Assembly (NCBI GenBank): GCA_030445695.1
Contig: JASUTF010000004.1
Span: 1-38,875 of the forward strand
DNA: 38,875 nt
From: Candidatus Iainarchaeum sp.
GTDB lineage: Archaea; Iainarchaeota; Iainarchaeia; JAADDC01
Direction of reading: 5' to 3'
Part shown: positions 2,498 through 36,872 of the stretch, one piece after another
Position numbering within the stretch: the stretch's first letter is position 1
How the letters are laid out: every line of letters starts with the position of its first letter
Made by a program: the position numbers and the translations under genes
Notes under the pieces: generated by a model
The model's database searches: none
What the model saw: the letters and a program-made list of their open reading frames with translations, nothing else
What the model was told of the DNA's origin: nothing

Positions 2498-2720
2498 AAG
2501 GATGCACTGGAGCGGTTTCAAGGTGTTCGTCCTCTCTACCTTCATCGTGGTGGCTGTGGTCATATACGTCTACGTTCTGAACCTTTACCTCGGCCGCTGG
2601 AAGGCATACTTCATGCGCTCCGGGAACCTGATGTATTACGTCTACCTGACCCTGTTTACGTTCATATGCGTCCAGATCATGAAGTATCTCTGGAAGTGGC
2701 AGGTGCGGGGGCTCACCTGA
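2484..2720 (+). CDS. small membrane protein (2 predicted TM segments)
   Basis: MRMRRRMHWSGFKVFVLSTFIVVAVVIYVYV...LMYYVYLTLFTFICVQIMKYLW. Overlaps the ligase 3' end. Confidence 0.6.
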   Translation: MRMRRRMHWSGFKVFVLSTFIVVAVVIYVYVLNLYLGRWKAYFMRSGNLMYYVYLTLFTFICVQIMKYLWKWQVRGLT

Positions 2721-3033
2721 CCCGTGCACCCACCTTTACGTCCCTGTCGGGCAGAAGGAGCGCCACGTTCTCCCCGTCGTCCGCTGCCAGAAGCATGCCC
2801 TGTGAAGTCACGCCCATGAGCTTCTTCGGCTCGAGGTTCGCCAGAACCACGATCTTCCTCCCTTCGAGCTCCTCCGGGCTGTATATTCCCTTCAGACCGG
2901 CTACCAGCGTTCTCTCCTCGTCCCCGAGATCCACTATCAGTTTGTAGAGCTTCTTGCTCCCGGGAATGTCCTCCACCTTCTTCACGAGGGCAACGCGGAT
3001 GTCCAGTTTCGCGAACTCGTCGTAGGATACCAT
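2713..3033 (-). CDS. stand-alone tRNA-binding OB-fold protein (MetRS C-terminal/beta-like, CsaA-like)
   Basis: Pattern YDEFAKLDIRVALVKKVEDIPGSKKLYKLIVDLGDEERTLVAGLKGIYSPEELEGRKIVVLANLEPKKLMGVTSQGMLLAA is typical of the tRNA_bind family. Confidence 0.9.
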   Translation of the reverse strand: MVSYDEFAKLDIRVALVKKVEDIPGSKKLYKLIVDLGDEERTLVAGLKGIYSPEELEGRKIVVLANLEPKKLMGVTSQGMLLAADDGENVALLLPDRDVKVGARVR

Positions 3034-3065: not shown

Positions 3066-3644
3066 GTGCGCATAAAGCTCGTTGCAGCGGTGAAGGACCC
3101 GAAGGTTCTGCTCATGCAGATGAAGAACGACCCCGACGTCATTCCCAAGGGCAGCACCACCTACGTTGAGACGCTCCTCTTCATGATGCAGGGCGCATAC
3201 GGTGCCCCCGACCTCTATGCCATCCGTGTCTGGGACGAGCGGGACGAGAAGGCGGTTCTTGTCCATCTCGGCCATGGTCTTCGCAACCAAGAAGAGGACG
3301 TCGTGGAAACGGGTGAGAAGGACCGACTTCTTTACAAGCTACAGAACCTCGGCTACCAGCCCGTGGGCGAGTTTACCGTCTCGGAGTGGAAGTATCGCTG
3401 GAGGGAGTTCTTCGGGGATATCATTACCGTGGAGGGTCTTGGTACGTTCATACGCATCTACCGCGAGTTTCCAGGAGAGGACTCCAACGTTTTCGCGGAA
3501 CGTCAGCGGAAGGCCTTCGAGTTTCTCCGACGTTTTGGGATAAAAAAGGAGGATCTGCTGCCCTACGACGTGCGCGGTTTGATCGTCGTGATGCTTCTCC
3601 AGCAGATGGAGCAGCAGGCACAGCAGGGGCAGGGGCAGCAATAA
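3066..3644 (+). CDS. hypothetical protein, possibly CYTH-like
   Basis: GTG start. ITVEGLGTFIRIYREF resembles the V-x-GLG-x-F-x-E segment of CYTH-fold proteins. Weak family assignment. Confidence 0.6.
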   Translation: MRIKLVAAVKDPKVLLMQMKNDPDVIPKGSTTYVETLLFMMQGAYGAPDLYAIRVWDERDEKAVLVHLGHGLRNQEEDVVETGEKDRLLYKLQNLGYQPVGEFTVSEWKYRWREFFGDIITVEGLGTFIRIYREFPGEDSNVFAERQRKAFEFLRRFGIKKEDLLPYDVRGLIVVMLLQQMEQQAQQGQGQQ

Positions 3645-3672: not shown

Positions 3673-3747
3673 GGGCCCGTGGTCTAGCCTGGCTATGACG
3701 TCGCCCTTACGAGGCGAAGGTCCCCGGTTCAAATCCGGGCGGGCCCA
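3673..3747 (+). tRNA. tRNA-Val (anticodon TAC)
   Basis: Manual cloverleaf: acceptor GGGCCCG/CGGGCCC, anticodon arm TCGCC-CTTACGA-GGCGA, T arm CCCGG-TTCAAAT-CCGGG. No encoded CCA. Confidence 0.95.
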
Positions 3748-3756
3748 CTTCTCTGC

Positions 3757-3866
3757 ACATTTCATTTAGCTGCGAATTCGTATTCAGGGGATCTTCGACC
3801 CCCTTGTACTCAGTTGTGGGTACGGGTTCGTAGAACCCGTGGCCGCGTTCGCGGCTCAATGAAATG
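3757..3866 (+). repeat. structured element downstream of tRNA-Val (long imperfect hairpin with internal hairpins)
   Basis: CATTTCATT-T-AGCTGCGAA (3758-3776) pairs with TTCGCGGCT-C-AATGAAATG (3848-3866). Internal hairpins are GGGGaTC-TTC-GACCCC and ACGGGTTC-GTA-GAACCCGT. First 56 nt are homologous to 36733-36787. Confidence 0.75.
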
Positions 3867-3875
3867 GGCTTCGCG

Positions 3876-3892
3876 ATCCGGGCAGGCCCACT
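3876..3892 (+). repeat. partial 3'-end copy of tRNA-Val
   Basis: ATCCGGGCAGGCCCACT versus tRNA ATCCGGGCGGGCCCACT (3733-3749): 16/17 identical. Confidence 0.85.
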
Positions 3893-4008
3893 CCAATCCC
3901 TTTTGGTTTTCTCGCAATAATTTTTGGGTTTGAATGTAGTTCGTTTTTATTCACCCTGCCACCAACTATTAACTTATGAGTAGTGGTAACACCCGTGGGG
4001 TGATAGGT

Positions 4009-7000
4009 ATGCGTGGCTTCTACGCGCTATTTGCAATAATACTCATCCTTGCGGCTCACGTGGCGTACGCAGAGGACGATGCAGCCATATGGATCACGTC
4101 CCCGAAGGACGGTTCTGAAGTGCTCGGGAAGTATGCTGACGTTTCCGTTTCTTTCTACGGCGGTGATAGAATAGACCTCTTTGTGGACGGTAAATACACA
4201 GCGTTTAAGGGAGGTCTGGCCGGAAAATACTCGTACACTTTTGAAAATGTTGAGCTCGGCGATATCGGTTCGCACACGATTACCGTAAAGCTCTACGACT
4301 GTGCAAACGCTGTTAACGGGCAGTGCAACTTCCTGGATCAGGACAGCGTGGACGTGACTGTCCGCTACATACAGCTGAGCGGCAGTAAAACAGTGCCCGT
4401 TGGTTCCCCTGCCAGTTACACGGCTCGCGTGTGCTACGCGGACAAGGTTGCCTTCTACGTGAACGGTGAGAAGGTCACGGACAAGAGTGCCAACGACGAG
4501 GGCTGTACCAGCGTTTCCTTCTCCTACACGCCGCAGGAGGTCGGCAGCTACACGATCCGCGCAGACGCTGTTAAATGCCTCATCGGGGGGTGGTTCTGCA
4601 ACTGGGACAGCCCCCTTGACTCGGATTCCCTCACGCTCAACGTTACCGAGAAGTATTCCGTGACGATCCAGGAGCCCAGGACGGGTTACGTGATACACTC
4701 ATCTCCCTTCGACGTGGGCGTCCAGTACTCCGGATTCGACGGATGTTCGAACCCGGCCATTGCCATTTACGTTGACGACGAATTCAAGACAAAGAAAAAC
4801 CTGACCAGCGGTTCCGGGAGCGTTCTTTTCAGCATCTCCGTCCCCGAGGGCGAGCACACAATCAAGGCGGCGGGTTACTGCAACTACCCGAACAAGGAAG
4901 ACGGCTACGCGGGGCACAGCGTAACCATAAAAGCGGATTACTTGGAGGACATACGAATAACGTCCCCCGCCAGCAACACCACCACGGATAAGTCAAGCAT
5001 TGATGTGGACTACTCTTATGACGGCCTCGGGTTCTGTTCCAGTCCAATGGCGTACATATACGTTAACGACGTGCTGAAGGACGGGAAGTCCCTCAGCGGC
5101 TATTCCGGAACGGGATCCTTCACAGTGGGGCTGGAGAAGGGAGCGAATGACATAGAGGTCGTGCTCCGCTGCCAGAAGACATACGGTGCCAAGGATCTTG
5201 TGGAGGTCTCCGACTCCGTAACGGTGAACTACGAACCGCCCACGCCACCCCCACCATCCAACGAGCCCCCCAAGATAGAGTCCGTTGACGTTGAGCCGTC
5301 CAACACCGTCGAGTGGGGCACGTTTGTAACAGTCACGGTCACTGCAAGCGATCCCGACGGCGTGGACGATCTGGACGATCTTGTGGTCAAACTTGTGGAC
5401 GGTCCCTGTGATAAGAGAGAACACTACGGGCTCTACATCGAACCGTTTACCGGAGATACTGCCAGCGTTACCATGAGGACGGACTGGATAAAGGGCTGGC
5501 AGCAGGGCACGAGGATACCGCCCGGAACCTACACGCTCTGCGTGAAGGCGTATGACGATTCAGGCGACTACGACGAGGCATCAAAGACTCTTACAATACT
5601 GGAGCAGTATGTTCCTCCCAGCGTGAGCGTGGAAGTCCCCTATGAGAACTACAGGGTTGGCTGGGCAGTCCACATAGAAGCCCGTGCCACGGGTACTGAC
5701 CTTGAACTGCTCGAGGCGAACGTTTACCGTGGTTGGGACGATCCCGTGTTTGTCCGCCGCCTCTTCGAGGAGTGCTCCGGCAATTCCTGCGAACTGAACG
5801 CGAACTTTGTGCCCATGATTGCAGGGCACTACACAGTGGTGGCCAGGGTCGTGGACTCAAATGGTGCGGAGGCCACGGCTGAGGACAGTTTCAACGTTCT
5901 TCCATCCCCGCCCAGGAATCAGGAGCCCGTTGCGAAGATTTATACCCCGAAGAAAGCCAGCCCCGGAAGGACCTTCCAGTTTACAGTCTGCGGTTCTGAT
6001 TCCGACGGGGAAGTCGTCACGGTGGCGGGCAAGGTCGGCTCCGGCGACTGGGTCTATAAGACGCCCAACTCCAAAGGCTGTGCGGAGTTCAGCGGAACGG
6101 CACCGAGCAGCCCCACCACAGTCACCGTATATGGTAAGGCGAAGGATGACGACGGTGCCTGGAGTTCCGTGGTTTCAAAGACCATCGAGGTGAACTACTC
6201 TGCCCCCGTCGTGGAGGCGATGAACGTTCCTCCAAAGGTCTTTGTGGGCAGGGATTTCAACATTTCCGTCATCGTGAGCGACGTAGACCGCGATCTTGAC
6301 AGGGTAGTCCTGGAGATCGTAAAGAGCGGCATCACCGTCGGTCGCTACAGCAAGCCCGTTGATGAGGACGGTGGAACTGTTGTCTTCACGGTGTCTGTTT
6401 CCGAGGATGGGAACTATACCGCTTTCGTTACTGCCTACGACCGGCAGGGACTGAAGGCGTCCCGTTCCGAGAACTTCGAGGCAGTGTTCCCGCCGAACGA
6501 ACCACCCGTCGTCGACTCGGTTGAGATACTGGGCGATGTTTATGTGGGCGAGCCCTTTGACATGAACGTCTGCGCCCACGACCCTGATGATCATGTCCAG
6601 TGGATATCCTACCGCATCGAGAAGGGTGCAGCAGGTGCCTCTCGCGTCTGGGCGGACGGCTGCCACGTGATTACCGTTCCATCCCCGGGCGTTTCTGCAC
6701 CCGGCGACTACGAGATGAACGTGTGGGCCGTTGACTACAGAAACGCCAACAGCGAGATTTACACGCTAACGCTGCACGTGGTGTCCCCAGAGCACCCGCC
6801 GAAGATCGAGGCCTTTGACCTGCCGCCCGATCTGCAGGTCGGCAAGGAATACACGGTTCCAGTTACCGTCAGCGACCCGGATGGCGACCTGTCCTACGTG
6901 GAGCTCAACGTTTATAGTGTGGATACGGGTGGACTCGTTGCAAGGGATGAGAAACCAGTGTCTGGCTACGAGGCAAACGCAACGCTCCACTTCACAGTGA

Positions 7001-8577
7001 ACAGAATAGGTCCGTACCGGATAGTCCTCGCGGTCTACGACAAGGCAGGGCACTCCGACGACAGAACGATCGCTATATTTGCAGACGACAATATCCCGCC
7101 CAGCGTTGAGGTACGGTGGACGAAAGATGTGAACGTCCCCGGCGTCATCTACGTGGACTTCAAGGCCCACGACAACTACGAGCTGAACGTCGCAAAGGTC
7201 TACTACCGCAGAGCCGGTTCGAACGAGTGGATCTTCCACGAGGCGTATGAGCTCAGCGGAACGGAGTACGAGGTGCAGGCGGGCATTCCCGTTTTCGAGC
7301 CCGGCGAATACAACATGATGATCGTGGTTTCCGACGTTGCGGGCAACGAGGCGACTGCATACGCTTCAGCACGTGCAGTGGACGAGATCGCACCGGTGAT
7401 CACCATAACCGCACCGAACGAGGTGAACCAGGGCGAGGAGTTCCAGTTCAGGGTGGACGTCACGGACAACTACAAGATCGGCTCCGTCTACGTCAAGGTG
7501 GATGGGAACACCATCTACTCAAACGAATCCGTTAATTCGAACCACTGGAGCGAGACGTTCACATACACGTTCACCCACGCCAGCCAGCACCACATTGAGG
7601 TGGTGGCGGAGGACGTGCTCCACAACGAGGTGACTAAGGAGCACCCCGTTGAAGTGCATACCGTCGATGCCAACGCGCCGGTCATCGAACTGAACGCCTG
7701 GTACGACGAGAACACCAACTACATCCTCTGGGAGGTGCACGTCACCGATCCGAACCTTGCGGACGTGAACGTATACCTCAACGGTGAATACTTGGGCTCC
7801 TGCGACGTGAGCGACGGCGTGGCGGACTGCGGTGGCGGACACGTCGTTGACGAGGCAGGGAAATACACGGTGAAGGTCGTCGCGGTGGACGAGTTCGGCA
7901 ACCGCTCCGAGAAGAGTGTTACCATAACCATCACTGACGAGCCACCCGTTCTGAACATCTCCGCACCGGCAACGGTGCCCGTTGGGGGCACTGCGACAAT
8001 ACACGTCTCCGCATCCGACGACTTCGGACTTGCGCACATAGAGTTGAACGGCTACGGCATCGGCGTGGACGAGAACATCAGCGGGAGAGCGTTTGAACGC
8101 GACTTCAACGTTGTGCTGTCCAAAGAGGGAGAGTACGCTTACAGAGTCGCAGTGACTGACACGGCGGGCCACAGGGTTGAGAAGAACGTCACCATCGTTG
8201 CCACAACCGAGGGACACACCTACGATCTCGTGCTGACGGCATACAGCGGCACCACCGCCAGGGTTGTTGTCCAGGGCAAGATAGACGGATCCCTTGTGGA
8301 TCTATACTGCTCCGACGTAGTGGTGAACATAGAACCCGCCGACTCGGAGACGCCCATGGGTTCCTACACGACGCACGACACGATTGTGGACAACCACAAG
8401 GCCTGCGAAGTTGTGGTGACCGGAACGGGCAAGTACATAGTCAGGGCAACATGGATGGGCGTGACGAAGGGAACAATCGTGACGGTGTTCTCCGAATCGG
8501 TGGCAGCGCCGGAGAGCGTGTGGGTCGCCCTTGTCCTGGGGCTCGTTGCCCTGGGTGTGCTCGGGCGGCTCATCTAA
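4009..8577 (+). CDS. large secreted/cell-surface protein with tandem Ig-like/PKD-like domains and C-terminal TM anchor
   Basis: Signal peptide MRGFYALFAIILILAAHVAYA. Many repeats of the form PPxVxxxxxPxxVxVGxxFxxxVxVxDxDxDL. Terminal hydrophobic VWVALVLGLVALGVLGRLI. The track start at 3976 is possible, but 4009 has a GGTGAT ribosome-binding site. Confidence 0.85.
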   Translation: MRGFYALFAIILILAAHVAYAEDDAAIWITSPKDGSEVLGKYADVSVSFYGGDRIDLFVDGKYTAFKGGLAGKYSYTFENVELGDIGSHTITVKLYDCANAVNGQCNFLDQDSVDVTVRYIQLSGSKTVPVGSPASYTARVCYADKVAFYVNGEKVTDKSANDEGCTSVSFSYTPQEVGSYTIRADAVKCLIGGWFCNWDSPLDSDSLTLNVTEKYSVTIQEPRTGYVIHSSPFDVGVQYSGFDGCSNPAIAIYVDDEFKTKKNLTSGSGSVLFSISVPEGEHTIKAAGYCNYPNKEDGYAGHSVTIKADYLEDIRITSPASNTTTDKSSIDVDYSYDGLGFCSSPMAYIYVNDVLKDGKSLSGYSGTGSFTVGLEKGANDIEVVLRCQKTYGAKDLVEVSDSVTVNYEPPTPPPPSNEPPKIESVDVEPSNTVEWGTFVTVTVTASDPDGVDDLDDLVVKLVDGPCDKREHYGLYIEPFTGDTASVTMRTDWIKGWQQGTRIPPGTYTLCVKAYDDSGDYDEASKTLTILEQYVPPSVSVEVPYENYRVGWAVHIEARATGTDLELLEANVYRGWDDPVFVRRLFEECSGNSCELNANFVPMIAGHYTVVARVVDSNGAEATAEDSFNVLPSPPRNQEPVAKIYTPKKASPGRTFQFTVCGSDSDGEVVTVAGKVGSGDWVYKTPNSKGCAEFSGTAPSSPTTVTVYGKAKDDDGAWSSVVSKTIEVNYSAPVVEAMNVPPKVFVGRDFNISVIVSDVDRDLDRVVLEIVKSGITVGRYSKPVDEDGGTVVFTVSVSEDGNYTAFVTAYDRQGLKASRSENFEAVFPPNEPPVVDSVEILGDVYVGEPFDMNVCAHDPDDHVQWISYRIEKGAAGASRVWADGCHVITVPSPGVSAPGDYEMNVWAVDYRNANSEIYTLTLHVVSPEHPPKIEAFDLPPDLQVGKEYTVPVTVSDPDGDLSYVELNVYSVDTGGLVARDEKPVSGYEANATLHFTVNRIGPYRIVLAVYDKAGHSDDRTIAIFADDNIPPSVEVRWTKDVNVPGVIYVDFKAHDNYELNVAKVYYRRAGSNEWIFHEAYELSGTEYEVQAGIPVFEPGEYNMMIVVSDVAGNEATAYASARAVDEIAPVITITAPNEVNQGEEFQFRVDVTDNYKIGSVYVKVDGNTIYSNESVNSNHWSETFTYTFTHASQHHIEVVAEDVLHNEVTKEHPVEVHTVDANAPVIELNAWYDENTNYILWEVHVTDPNLADVNVYLNGEYLGSCDVSDGVADCGGGHVVDEAGKYTVKVVAVDEFGNRSEKSVTITITDEPPVLNISAPATVPVGGTATIHVSASDDFGLAHIELNGYGIGVDENISGRAFERDFNVVLSKEGEYAYRVAVTDTAGHRVEKNVTIVATTEGHTYDLVLTAYSGTTARVVVQGKIDGSLVDLYCSDVVVNIEPADSETPMGSYTTHDTIVDNHKACEVVVTGTGKYIVRATWMGVTKGTIVTVFSESVAAPESVWVALVLGLVALGVLGRLI

Positions 8578-8652: not shown

Positions 8653-8677
8653 CTCCGGTGCCGGGCGACAATCCTTT

Positions 8678-8761
8678 GCGGGGGTGCCCGAGGGGACAAA
8701 GGGGCCGGATTGAGGGTCCGGTGGCTTAGTGCCTGCCTGGGTTCGAATCCCAGCCCCCGCA
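8678..8761 (+). tRNA. tRNA-Leu (anticodon GAG)
   Basis: Class II tRNA: acceptor GCGGGGG/CCCCCGC, anticodon arm CCGGA-TTGAGGG-TCCGG, long variable arm, T arm CTGGG-TTCGAAT-CCCAG. Confidence 0.95.
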
Positions 8762-8843
8762 TACCCAATCATCTTTCTGTTCGATGACCTGTCGAGCGTA
8801 AGCGAAGACAGGGCGCGTCCGGCCAAAGCACTTGGCCTTCGTG

Positions 8844-8858
8844 ATCCCAGCCCCCGCA
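8844..8858 (+). repeat. partial 3'-end copy of tRNA-Leu
   Basis: ATCCCAGCCCCCGCA is a 15/15 match to tRNA 3' end 8747-8761, also preceded by TTCG. Confidence 0.85.
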
Positions 8859-8887
8859 CTTTTATGTCCTTATATCCTCTTTTTCTA

Positions 8888-8979: not shown

Positions 8980-10236
8980 ATGAGCGTCGTATCGGAGTAT
9001 CTAAAGTTTCTGGGGAACAAAACGGAGGAGGAAGTTGTCGAGGCGGTTCTCAAATTGGCAAAGAGGGCAGGTTTCCACAACATAGAGGAGATCGATTCCC
9101 TCTCGAAGGGAGACCGCGTGTATTACCGCAGGGGGAACTTCCTGGCACTGGCGGTGATCGGTGACGGCGACGAGGGTAGAATCGTCGTTTCCCACGTCGA
9201 TGCGCCCCGCATTGACCTGAAGCCCCGGCCCTTCGTGGAGATGGACGGTTACGTATATCTGAAGACCCACTACTACGGCGGAATCAAGCCCTACCAGTGG
9301 ATAGGGGTCCCCCTTGAGATCAGGGGGAAAGTAGTGACCGTGGACGGTGAGGAGTACTCCGTTTCCATCCCGACGGTCATAACAGACTTCGCCCCGCATC
9401 TCGATAGGAACTGGGGGGACAAGAAGGTCTCGGAGGCGTTCGACCCGGAGAAGCTCGAGCCCATTGTTGCCCTCGGGACGAAGGATGGCGTTCTGGAGAA
9501 GATAAAGGACGAGTTCGGTGTGGAGGAGGCGGACTTCCTTTCTGCCGACCTGAAACTCGTTCCGCGCATACAGCCGGAGATCTTCGGGGCCCACAGGGAA
9601 CTAATCATGGCCTATGGCCACGACGACCGTTCCTGCGTCTTCTCCTCCGCCAGGGCGATAATGGATGCTGACTACCATGGGGGCATCTCTGTGGCACTCT
9701 TTGTGGATCGCGAGGAGACGGGCAGCACGACAGAGGGCTCCGCCGCCTCCCGGGTGGTGGACCACTTCCTCATCACCCTGCTCAGGAAACTGGGGAAAGG
9801 GGGTGACTTCACCTCCCTACTGGACTTCTACGCGCGTTCAAGGGTAATATCGGCGGACGTTACCGCGGGTTACGACCCGCTCTACGGCGATCTATACGAC
9901 AAGGAGAACGCCCCGAAGCTGGGTAACGGCGTTGTTGTATCCCGCTACTCCGGCACGGGTGGGAAGTACTACGGCAGTGAGGCAAGCGCCGGCTACGTCG
10001 CGTGGATCCGCAGAGTCCTCGAGGAAAACGAGGTGCCATACCAGTCCGGGACGCTGGGCAAGGTGGGGACGGCCGGCGGGGGAACGGTGGCCACATACTT
10101 CGCCGTCAGGGGTGCTGATGTGGTGGATATGGGGCCTGCAGTCCTTTCCATGCACTCCCCCGTCGAAGTGATGGCAGGAGCGGATCTGGAGTCCGCCTAC
10201 AGGGCCTACAGGCACTTCTACGAGTGGGTGGATTGA
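8980..10236 (+). CDS. M18-family aspartyl aminopeptidase
   Basis: VSHVDAPRIDLKPRPF, YGHDDRSC, DREETGSTTEGSAAS and MGPAVLSMHSPVEV motifs typical of M18 metallopeptidases. Confidence 0.9.
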   Translation: MSVVSEYLKFLGNKTEEEVVEAVLKLAKRAGFHNIEEIDSLSKGDRVYYRRGNFLALAVIGDGDEGRIVVSHVDAPRIDLKPRPFVEMDGYVYLKTHYYGGIKPYQWIGVPLEIRGKVVTVDGEEYSVSIPTVITDFAPHLDRNWGDKKVSEAFDPEKLEPIVALGTKDGVLEKIKDEFGVEEADFLSADLKLVPRIQPEIFGAHRELIMAYGHDDRSCVFSSARAIMDADYHGGISVALFVDREETGSTTEGSAASRVVDHFLITLLRKLGKGGDFTSLLDFYARSRVISADVTAGYDPLYGDLYDKENAPKLGNGVVVSRYSGTGGKYYGSEASAGYVAWIRRVLEENEVPYQSGTLGKVGTAGGGTVATYFAVRGADVVDMGPAVLSMHSPVEVMAGADLESAYRAYRHFYEWVD

Positions 10237-36515: not shown

Positions 36516-36532
36516 GGGGCCGTGGTGCAGCC
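36516..36532 (+). repeat. partial 5'-end copy of tRNA-Pro
   Basis: GGGGCCGTGGTGCAGCC versus tRNA-Pro 5' GGGGCCGTGGTGTAGCC (36649-36665): 16/17. Immediately follows the TATA-like GTGTATATGACC. Confidence 0.85.
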
Positions 36533-36645
36533 CACCGAGTGCTTCGGTGGAACGCCCGCGGGTGGGGTCTGCGACCCCACGCACATCCGCTGTGGGTGGT
36601 CGAGCGGAAGCGAAGACCGTCCGTCGTCAGGGCAGAGAATCTGAC
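36532..36645 (+). repeat. tandem hairpin array upstream of tRNA-Pro
   Basis: CCACCGA-GTGCT-TCGGTGG (36532-36550), GTGGGGTC-TGC-GACCCCAC (36562-36580), GGTC-GAGCGGAAGCGAA-GACC (36598-36618), GTCAG...CTGAC (36626-36645). Confidence 0.8.
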
Positions 36646-36648
36646 CAG

Positions 36649-36724
<76 letters not shown>

Positions 36725-36732
36725 CTGCTAGT

Positions 36733-36850
36733 ACATTTCATTTAGCTGCGACTTCGTATCTAGGGGGTCGTAGACCCCTAATACTCACCCCATCACGACG
36801 TTGTCGTGTGCACACAAGCAGAGCTTGCGATGCGGCTCGGTGCGGCGAGC
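36733..36850 (+). repeat. structured element downstream of tRNA-Pro
   Basis: First ~55 nt homologous to 3757-3812. Hairpins GGGGTC-GTA-GACCCC, CACGAC-GTT-GTCGTG, CAAGC-AGA-GCTTG, GGCTCG-GTGCGG-CGAGCC. Confidence 0.78.
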
Positions 36851-36851
36851 C

Positions 36852-36872
36852 TTCGAATCCCGGCAGCCCCAC
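36852..36872 (+). repeat. partial 3'-end copy of tRNA-Pro
   Basis: TTCGAATCCCGGCAGCCCCAC versus tRNA TTCGAATCCCGGCGGCCCCAC (36705-36725): 20/21. Confidence 0.88.

What the first reader, a model, noticed from the sequence alone, without database searches (positions are those of the whole stretch)
3673..3892. tRNA-Val followed by a structured element bounded by a second tRNA 3' end (att-like)
After tRNA-Val there is a ~110-nt hairpin-rich element and then ATCCGGGCAGGCCCACT, a 16/17 copy of the tRNA 3' end, followed by T-rich sequence. The layout (intact tRNA, insert, displaced 3' end plus terminator) is what tRNA-targeting integrases leave behind, but the insert is far too small to encode an integrase. 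This suggests a miniature, trans-mobilised integrative element or a tRNA-linked structured RNA.
Basis: partly seen in the sequence, partly recalled or inferred. Interest (0 to 1): 0.8.

Follow-up and report, generated by a model that had tools for sequence, protein, structure and literature searches.

The report
Tiny hairpin elements at tRNA ends
In a small group of tiny archaea about half of the tRNA genes of one genome carry a small, gene-free, hairpin-rich insert at one or both ends, each repeating roughly 15-24 letters of that very tRNA so that the gene stays intact, which looks like an undescribed family of miniature mobile elements that target tRNA genes.

Summary
tRNA-Val (3673-3748) is followed by a 126-nt hairpin-rich insert and a 17-nt copy of its own 3' end (3876-3892). 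In this Micrarchaeota genome 20 of 39 tRNAs carry such a self-copy: 12 at the 5' end (mostly nt 1 to 15/17) and 10 at the 3' end (mostly nt 58/59 to 73). Fisher p is 4e-16 (5') and 8e-11 (3'). All three tRNAs of the window are affected. The inserts share hairpin modules found in four species of the genus and, more weakly, in the sister genus. Of 96 left-module copies, 86 lie within 300 bp of a tRNA and 7 more at contig ends; orientation is strongly biased to that of the tRNA. Occupancy differs between species, and the orthologous Val-tac and Leu-gag sites of relative G004 are empty. The window genome has no detectable tyrosine or serine recombinase, Cas1, Y1 transposase or reverse transcriptase. 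Best reading: non-autonomous palindromic mobile elements that insert at tRNA-gene ends with target duplication, moved by an unknown activity. Template switching between tRNA flanks is the main rival.

The parts
3673..3748 (+). tRNA-Val(tac), intact; its 3' end 3733-3749 is the duplicated segment
3750..3875 (+). hairpin-rich insert (3' element), closed by 3758-3766 / 3858-3866; 7 further copies or part-copies in the genome, all beside tRNAs
3876..3892 (+). displaced copy of the tRNA-Val 3' end (16/17)
8677..8762 (+). tRNA-Leu(gag), intact
8763..8843 (+). hairpin-rich 3' insert, 81 nt; orthologous site empty in G004
8844..8859 (+). copy of the tRNA-Leu 3' end
36516..36532 (+). copy of tRNA-Pro(ggg) nt 1-17 (5' duplication, one mismatch)
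36533..36648 (+). 5' insert: left module 36533-36587 (model R1, 54.7 bits) plus right module ending at tRNA nt 1
36649..36725 (+). tRNA-Pro(ggg), intact, with elements at both ends
36726..36851 (+). 3' insert related at its left end to the Val element
36852..36872 (+). copy of the tRNA-Pro 3' end, from T54

Best explanation
SHOWN: small, gene-free, modular palindromic sequences (inserts of about 60-210 nt) sit at the ends of tRNA genes in one Micrarchaeota family. Each is bounded by the tRNA end and a partial copy of that same end, usually nt 1 to 15/17 at 5' sites and nt 58/59 to 73 at 3' sites, so the tRNA stays intact. INFERRED: they are non-autonomous mobile elements that insert specifically at tRNA-gene ends through staggered breaks about 15-22 nt apart, so that insertion duplicates the end and spares the gene. 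They are moved by an activity not yet identified, acting in trans or missing from the assemblies. Repeated insertion and exchange between tRNA flanks builds mosaics of hairpin modules.
For: 20 of 39 tRNAs of G000 carry a self-copy, far above matched controls. The copies match the local tRNA, at tRNAs of many isotypes. Modal duplication is 15 nt at both ends, with the outer boundary exactly at nt 1 in 14 of 24 5' sites. Inserts are a shared family: element probes hit 61 places in four genomes; 86 of 96 left-module copies lie within 300 bp of a tRNA and 7 more at contig ends. Occupied and empty orthologues: G004 keeps the gene neighbourhood of Val-tac and Leu-gag without inserts, and G002 has different inserts at Leu-gag. 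In G001 Ser-cga is occupied and paralogue Ser-gct empty. Precedent: casposase makes 14-15 bp duplications at archaeal tRNA 3' ends (PMC6977970).
Against: No candidate enzyme in the window genome, nor in G001 and G003, for tyrosine recombinase, Cas1, reverse transcriptase, serine recombinase or Y1 transposase, although assemblies are 87-92% complete. Duplication length varies (10-24 nt, outliers 35, 37, 38). Some copies are hybrids, and one 3' copy at G003 Glu-ctc looks like a tRNA-Gly end, which points to exchange between loci. No excised form or within-population polymorphism was seen.
Confidence: 0.55

Rival explanations
1. Template switching or ectopic gene conversion, with no integrase. 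During replication or repair a strand leaves a tRNA gene, copies a hairpin module from another tRNA flank, and returns upstream at a motif shared by tRNAs (D-arm TAGCTCAG, T-loop TTCRAATCC), so the tRNA end is duplicated.
For: Inner breakpoints fall at the most conserved tRNA motifs. The T-loop part of many 3' copies differs from the local tRNA while the rest matches it. The P1 hairpin type follows the D-arm type: GGCCGACGC with TAGCTCAG-like tRNAs, CACCGAGTGC with Arg/Pro tRNAs (not independent events). G003 Glu-ctc carries a Gly-like 3' end. Two duplications run on into element sequence, 37 and 38 nt. It needs no enzyme and explains the sense bias.
Against: The right end of 5' inserts abuts nt 1 of many different tRNAs exactly, although leaders share no sequence to guide the return. 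Antisense copies exist (7 of 86). It does not explain where the modules came from or why only tRNA genes are used.
Confidence: 0.28
2. Functional RNA: the inserts are tRNA leaders and trailers kept for an RNA role (processing, sRNA release), and the partial tRNA copies are part of that RNA.
For: Strong folding, conserved hairpin arrangement, strong sense-orientation bias, 78 sense to 7 antisense.
Against: Presence at a given tRNA differs between congeners. G-U pairs are not commoner than A-C mismatches. Antisense copies exist. No Rfam match.
Confidence: 0.1
3. Scars of larger integrated viruses or plasmids, or decayed tandem tRNA copies, that left tRNA fragments behind.
For: tRNA fragments at element borders are the usual footprint of integrated archaeal elements (PMC9897764).
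Against: The inserts are one shared sequence family at many tRNAs in several species, which decay would not produce. Three module patterns found no viral contig (exact patterns only). No larger insert was seen between a tRNA and its copy up to 600 nt.
Confidence: 0.05

Closest known systems
Casposons / Cas1 casposase (PMC6977970, PMC10359463)
   Same: Archaeal; target the 3' end of tRNA genes; make 14-15 bp target duplications, close to the modal 15 nt here; tandem insertion next to an existing copy reported.
   Different: Casposons are large and carry Cas1 and a polymerase. Here there are no genes, 5' ends are used as well, the duplicated stretch lies inside the tRNA, and no Cas1 was found in G000, G001 or G003.
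tRNA-targeting integrative elements and viruses with tyrosine integrase (PMC9897764)
   Same: One complete and one partial tRNA copy at the borders.
   Different: Those are about 9-23 kb and bring their own att site; these are about 60-210 nt, and the same modules sit at many different tRNAs with locally matching copies.
Caldiarchaeum tRNA-Thr disruption by a 1.8-kb element (PMC3293823)
   Same: A tRNA 5' fragment separated from a full tRNA by an inserted element in an archaeal population.
   Different: A single tRNA, an element encoding a recombinase, and linked to intron gain.
Mitochondrial hairpin elements, RHE and double-hairpin elements (PMC2800124)
   Same: Small mobile-looking hairpins in several families, often between genes including tRNA genes; mover unknown.
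   Different: Not tied to tRNA ends; no tRNA-end duplication reported in the passages read.
E. coli tyrT/rtT repeats and REP/BIME palindromes (own knowledge, not tested)
   Same: rtT: repeats after a tRNA that each contain the tRNA 3' end. BIMEs: mosaics of palindromic units.
   Different: rtT is one tandem locus. REPs are not tRNA-specific and depend on Y1 transposases, none found here.

Membership tests
Casposon (or mini-casposon) | 14-15 bp target duplication at tRNA 3' end | tested here: inconclusive
   Modal duplication 15 nt, but 10-24 nt range, outliers to 38, and 5' ends also used
Casposon (or mini-casposon) | Cas1 integrase in the same genome | tested here: not met
   PF01867 absent from G000, G001, G003, G004; present in G002 and in element-free G005
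Tyrosine-integrase element at tRNA | Tyrosine recombinase in element or genome | tested here: not met
   PF00589 absent from G000, G001, G003
Tyrosine-integrase element at tRNA | Complete plus partial tRNA copy at the borders | tested here: met
   24 5' and 20 3' cases listed, a few weak
REP/BIME palindromes | Mosaics of palindromic units | tested here: met
   Modules recombined in arrays, clearest in G001
REP/BIME palindromes | Y1 (RAYT-type) transposase | tested here: not met
   PF01797 absent from six genomes
Retroelement (SINE-like or group II-like) | Reverse transcriptase in the genome | tested here: not met
   PF00078 only in G002
Non-autonomous mobile element (MITE-like) | Dispersed related copies with target duplication and empty sites | tested here: met
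Non-autonomous mobile element (MITE-like) | Autonomous partner with the same ends | tested here: inconclusive
   Not seen in the fetched tRNA flanks or by viral-contig patterns; whole genomes not scanned for it
Known structured RNA | Match to an Rfam model | tested here: not met
   Only tRNA matches in the window

The most novel reading that the evidence does not exclude
A new kind of selfish or domesticated element: gene-free palindromes whose target is the tRNA gene itself, recognised at the mature tRNA boundaries (nt 1 and nt 73) and about 15 nt inward, moved by an enzyme class or tRNA-based process not yet described, and perhaps wider in Micrarchaeota (similar cases with unrelated sequence at 2 of 31 tRNAs in two distant families).
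Probability: 0.25. Interest if true: 0.9.

Novelty: new variant of a known kind. Interest (0 to 1): 0.75.

Why it matters
I found no published case of a prokaryotic genome in which about half of the tRNA genes carry one miniature insertion family with a duplicated tRNA end (open-access library only). It gives many natural experiments on how tRNA genes are targeted, on how the tRNA fragments thought to seed split and permuted tRNAs arise, and on whether host-dependent archaea harbour an unknown integrase. Such fragments also mislead tRNA annotation and break assemblies.

Tried and rejected
Rfam on the window and on odd loci: no family for the inserts. Missing RNase P as a reason for odd leaders: RNase P RNA not found in G000 but present in congeners, probably an assembly gap; dropped. 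G-U versus A-C counts as a test for RNA selection: no sign, but a weak test; one search also stopped on an error at its last step, and part of the A-C count comes from constant positions. Larger elements 300-600 nt out: only neighbouring tRNAs or gene sequence. Viral contigs, three module patterns: nothing. GTDB exact 24-mer: two contigs of one named Micrarchaeota MAG, whose sizes match G001. Flank folding energy as a genome-wide measure: only a mild difference from G005, not useful. Literature: no description of this family found.

Full report
CHECK OF THE OBSERVATION. tRNA-Val(tac) at 3673-3748 is intact. It is followed by a 126-nt insert (3750-3875) and by ATCCGGGCAGGCCCACT at 3876-3892, a 16/17 copy of 3733-3749. 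The downstream stretch folds at -71.2 kcal/mol against -52.1 +/- 3.8 for shuffles and matches no RNA family.

IT IS ONE OF MANY. A DNA search with the insert found 8 places in the window's own genome (G000, 664 kb, 29 contigs), counting itself. The seven fetched as loci each lie beside a tRNA gene: Val-tac, Val-gac, Glu-ctc, Pro-tgg, Ser-gga, Pro-ggg, Pro-cgg. The eighth lies just upstream of tRNA-Leu(tag) by its coordinates. The genome has 39 tRNA genes in my set. I scored each for recurrence of its own ends. Ten carry a copy of their 3' end downstream, twelve a copy of their 5' end upstream, and two (Pro-cgg, Pro-ggg) both, so 20 of 39 are affected. Against unrelated tRNA ends on the same flanks the excess is 12/39 vs 3/1016 (5') and 9/39 vs 5/1020 (3'; a slightly stricter cut), Fisher 4e-16 and 8e-11. 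Mirror-image controls gave 0 and 1. All three tRNAs of the window are affected: Leu-gag at its 3' end (8763-8859) and Pro-ggg at both ends (36516-36648 and 36726-36872).

ANATOMY. The 5' inserts usually begin with a left module: a variable hairpin P1, a short GCG..CGC hairpin P2, GG, a 7-9 bp hairpin P3, then CACA. A right module often follows, ending in a hairpin such as CAGAGAATCTG (G000), or GTCAACCGGGACACGGTT or GCCAGAGAAGCTGGC (G001), immediately before tRNA nt 1. In an alignment of 22 left modules, 6 of the 9 predicted pairs around P3 change on both sides in at least one sequence and none shows a one-sided (G-U type) change. Over more hairpins, G-U mismatches are not in excess of A-C. 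Palindromy is kept, but not in the way expected if only the RNA strand were selected. Replacement of whole hairpins, or correction of near-palindromes, would give such a pattern (inference).

DUPLICATION GEOMETRY. At 5' sites the copy starts exactly at tRNA nt 1 in 14 of 24 cases (one base further out in 4) and ends at nt 15 (9 cases), nt 17 (5) or nearby. At 3' sites it starts 15-17 nt from the end in 10 of 20 cases and 20-22 nt in 8, where the extra TTCG part often differs from the local T-loop; it ends at nt 73 or a few bases beyond. Most are 15-24 nt; outliers are 35, 37 and 38. A few entries are weak (for example G003 Cys, G003 Gln, G001 Glu-ttc).

RELATIVES. Congeners G001, G002 and G003 show self-copies too, largely at other tRNAs; their counts are smaller and the weakest p value is 0.03 (G001, 5'). 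Sister-genus genome G005 shows none. A covariance model of the left module matched 7 of 87 Micrarchaeota genomes, all in one family: 14-32 copies in each of four genomes of the genus, 2-7 weaker ones in G007, G008 and G009 of the sister genus. Of 96 left-module copies in held loci, 86 lie within 300 bp of a tRNA: 45 5' sense, 33 3' sense, 5 5' antisense, 2 3' antisense, 1 overlapping a doubtful tRNA call. Loci were largely chosen around tRNAs or by element hits, so the genome-wide evidence for tRNA association is the element searches themselves. Of the ten other copies seven are at contig ends. Of the remaining three, L220 carries an orphan tRNA-Thr 3' end beside the module, while L222 and L226 are unexplained. 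A 166-nt G001 element probe gave 61 matches in four genomes; 27 of the 30 fetched loci hold a tRNA by ARAGORN, a 28th (L187) an intron-containing one by Rfam, and the other two are at contig ends.

EMPTY SITES. G004 keeps the same gene neighbourhood (DNA ligase, the 3066-3644 ORF, the 2713-3033 ORF and the 8980-10236 ORF, 66-86% identity) and has tRNA-Val(tac) and tRNA-Leu(gag) without inserts. At Leu-gag the flank GGCGATGATGACGTGTACAACCGCTGAC follows soon after the tRNA in G004 and soon after the duplicated end in G000. G002 carries different elements at the same Leu-gag. In G001, Ser-cga has a 64-nt insert with a 35-nt duplication, while the paralogue Ser-gct reads straight through as TCACTATCCCTGCGCAGG.

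WHO MOVES THEM. Among G000-G003 the tyrosine recombinase, Cas1, reverse transcriptase and serine recombinase families were found only in G002, and Y1 transposase in none. Absence from 87-92% complete assemblies is suggestive, not proof. The nearest mechanistic parallel is the casposase, which makes 14-15 bp duplications at tRNA 3' ends (PMC6977970). Membership fails: there is no Cas1 in three element-bearing genomes, and 5' ends are used as well.

TWO MECHANISMS REMAIN. (A) Targeted integration with target duplication explains the local match of each copy, the modal 15 nt at both ends, and the exact abutment to nt 1. (B) Template switching between tRNA flanks explains the hybrid T-loops, the link between P1 type and D-arm type, the Gly-like 3' end at G003 Glu-ctc, the two duplications that run on into element sequence, the sense bias and the lack of an enzyme. 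I favour A for the insertions, with B-like exchange reshaping the arrays, but the evidence does not settle it.

BEYOND THE FAMILY. In two distant Micrarchaeota genomes (G012, G013), 2 of 31 tRNAs also show an own-end copy with a hairpin-rich insert of unrelated sequence. This hints at a broader phenomenon but is too little to claim.

LIMITS. The only record named by title is a metagenome-assembled genome, and the other genomes are multi-contig drafts; contigs tend to break at these repeats, so counts are lower bounds. tRNA ends follow ARAGORN, which can be off by a base. The literature search covers open-access papers only.

Noticed in passing
L250 and L257 (G012, G013; distant Micrarchaeota families): tRNA-Ala(cgc) with an upstream own-5'-end copy and tRNA-Arg(tct) with a downstream own-3'-end copy, each with hairpin-rich sequence between, unrelated in sequence to the elements here.
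   Followed up: partly
L220 (G002:C54), about 690-790: Left module next to an orphan tRNA-Thr 3' end (GGAATCCCGCCCGCGGCTC on the minus strand) with no tRNA gene nearby: a possible relic of a lost or moved tRNA.
   Followed up: partly
L222 (G002:C13) and L226 (G003:C98): Left-module copies in ordinary intergenic regions with no tRNA or tRNA fragment recognised.
   Followed up: no
G000 whole genome: No RNase P RNA match although congeners have one; probably an assembly gap at 88.6% completeness.
   Followed up: no
G001 loci L053, L085, L088: Long mosaics of left and right modules, about 300 nt, directly upstream of tRNA nt 1, mostly without a detectable 5' copy.
   Followed up: partly
window 3976-8577 (+): A 1533-aa ORF with many repeated segments and a hydrophobic C-terminus, looking like a large surface protein, directly after the Val element.
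   Followed up: no
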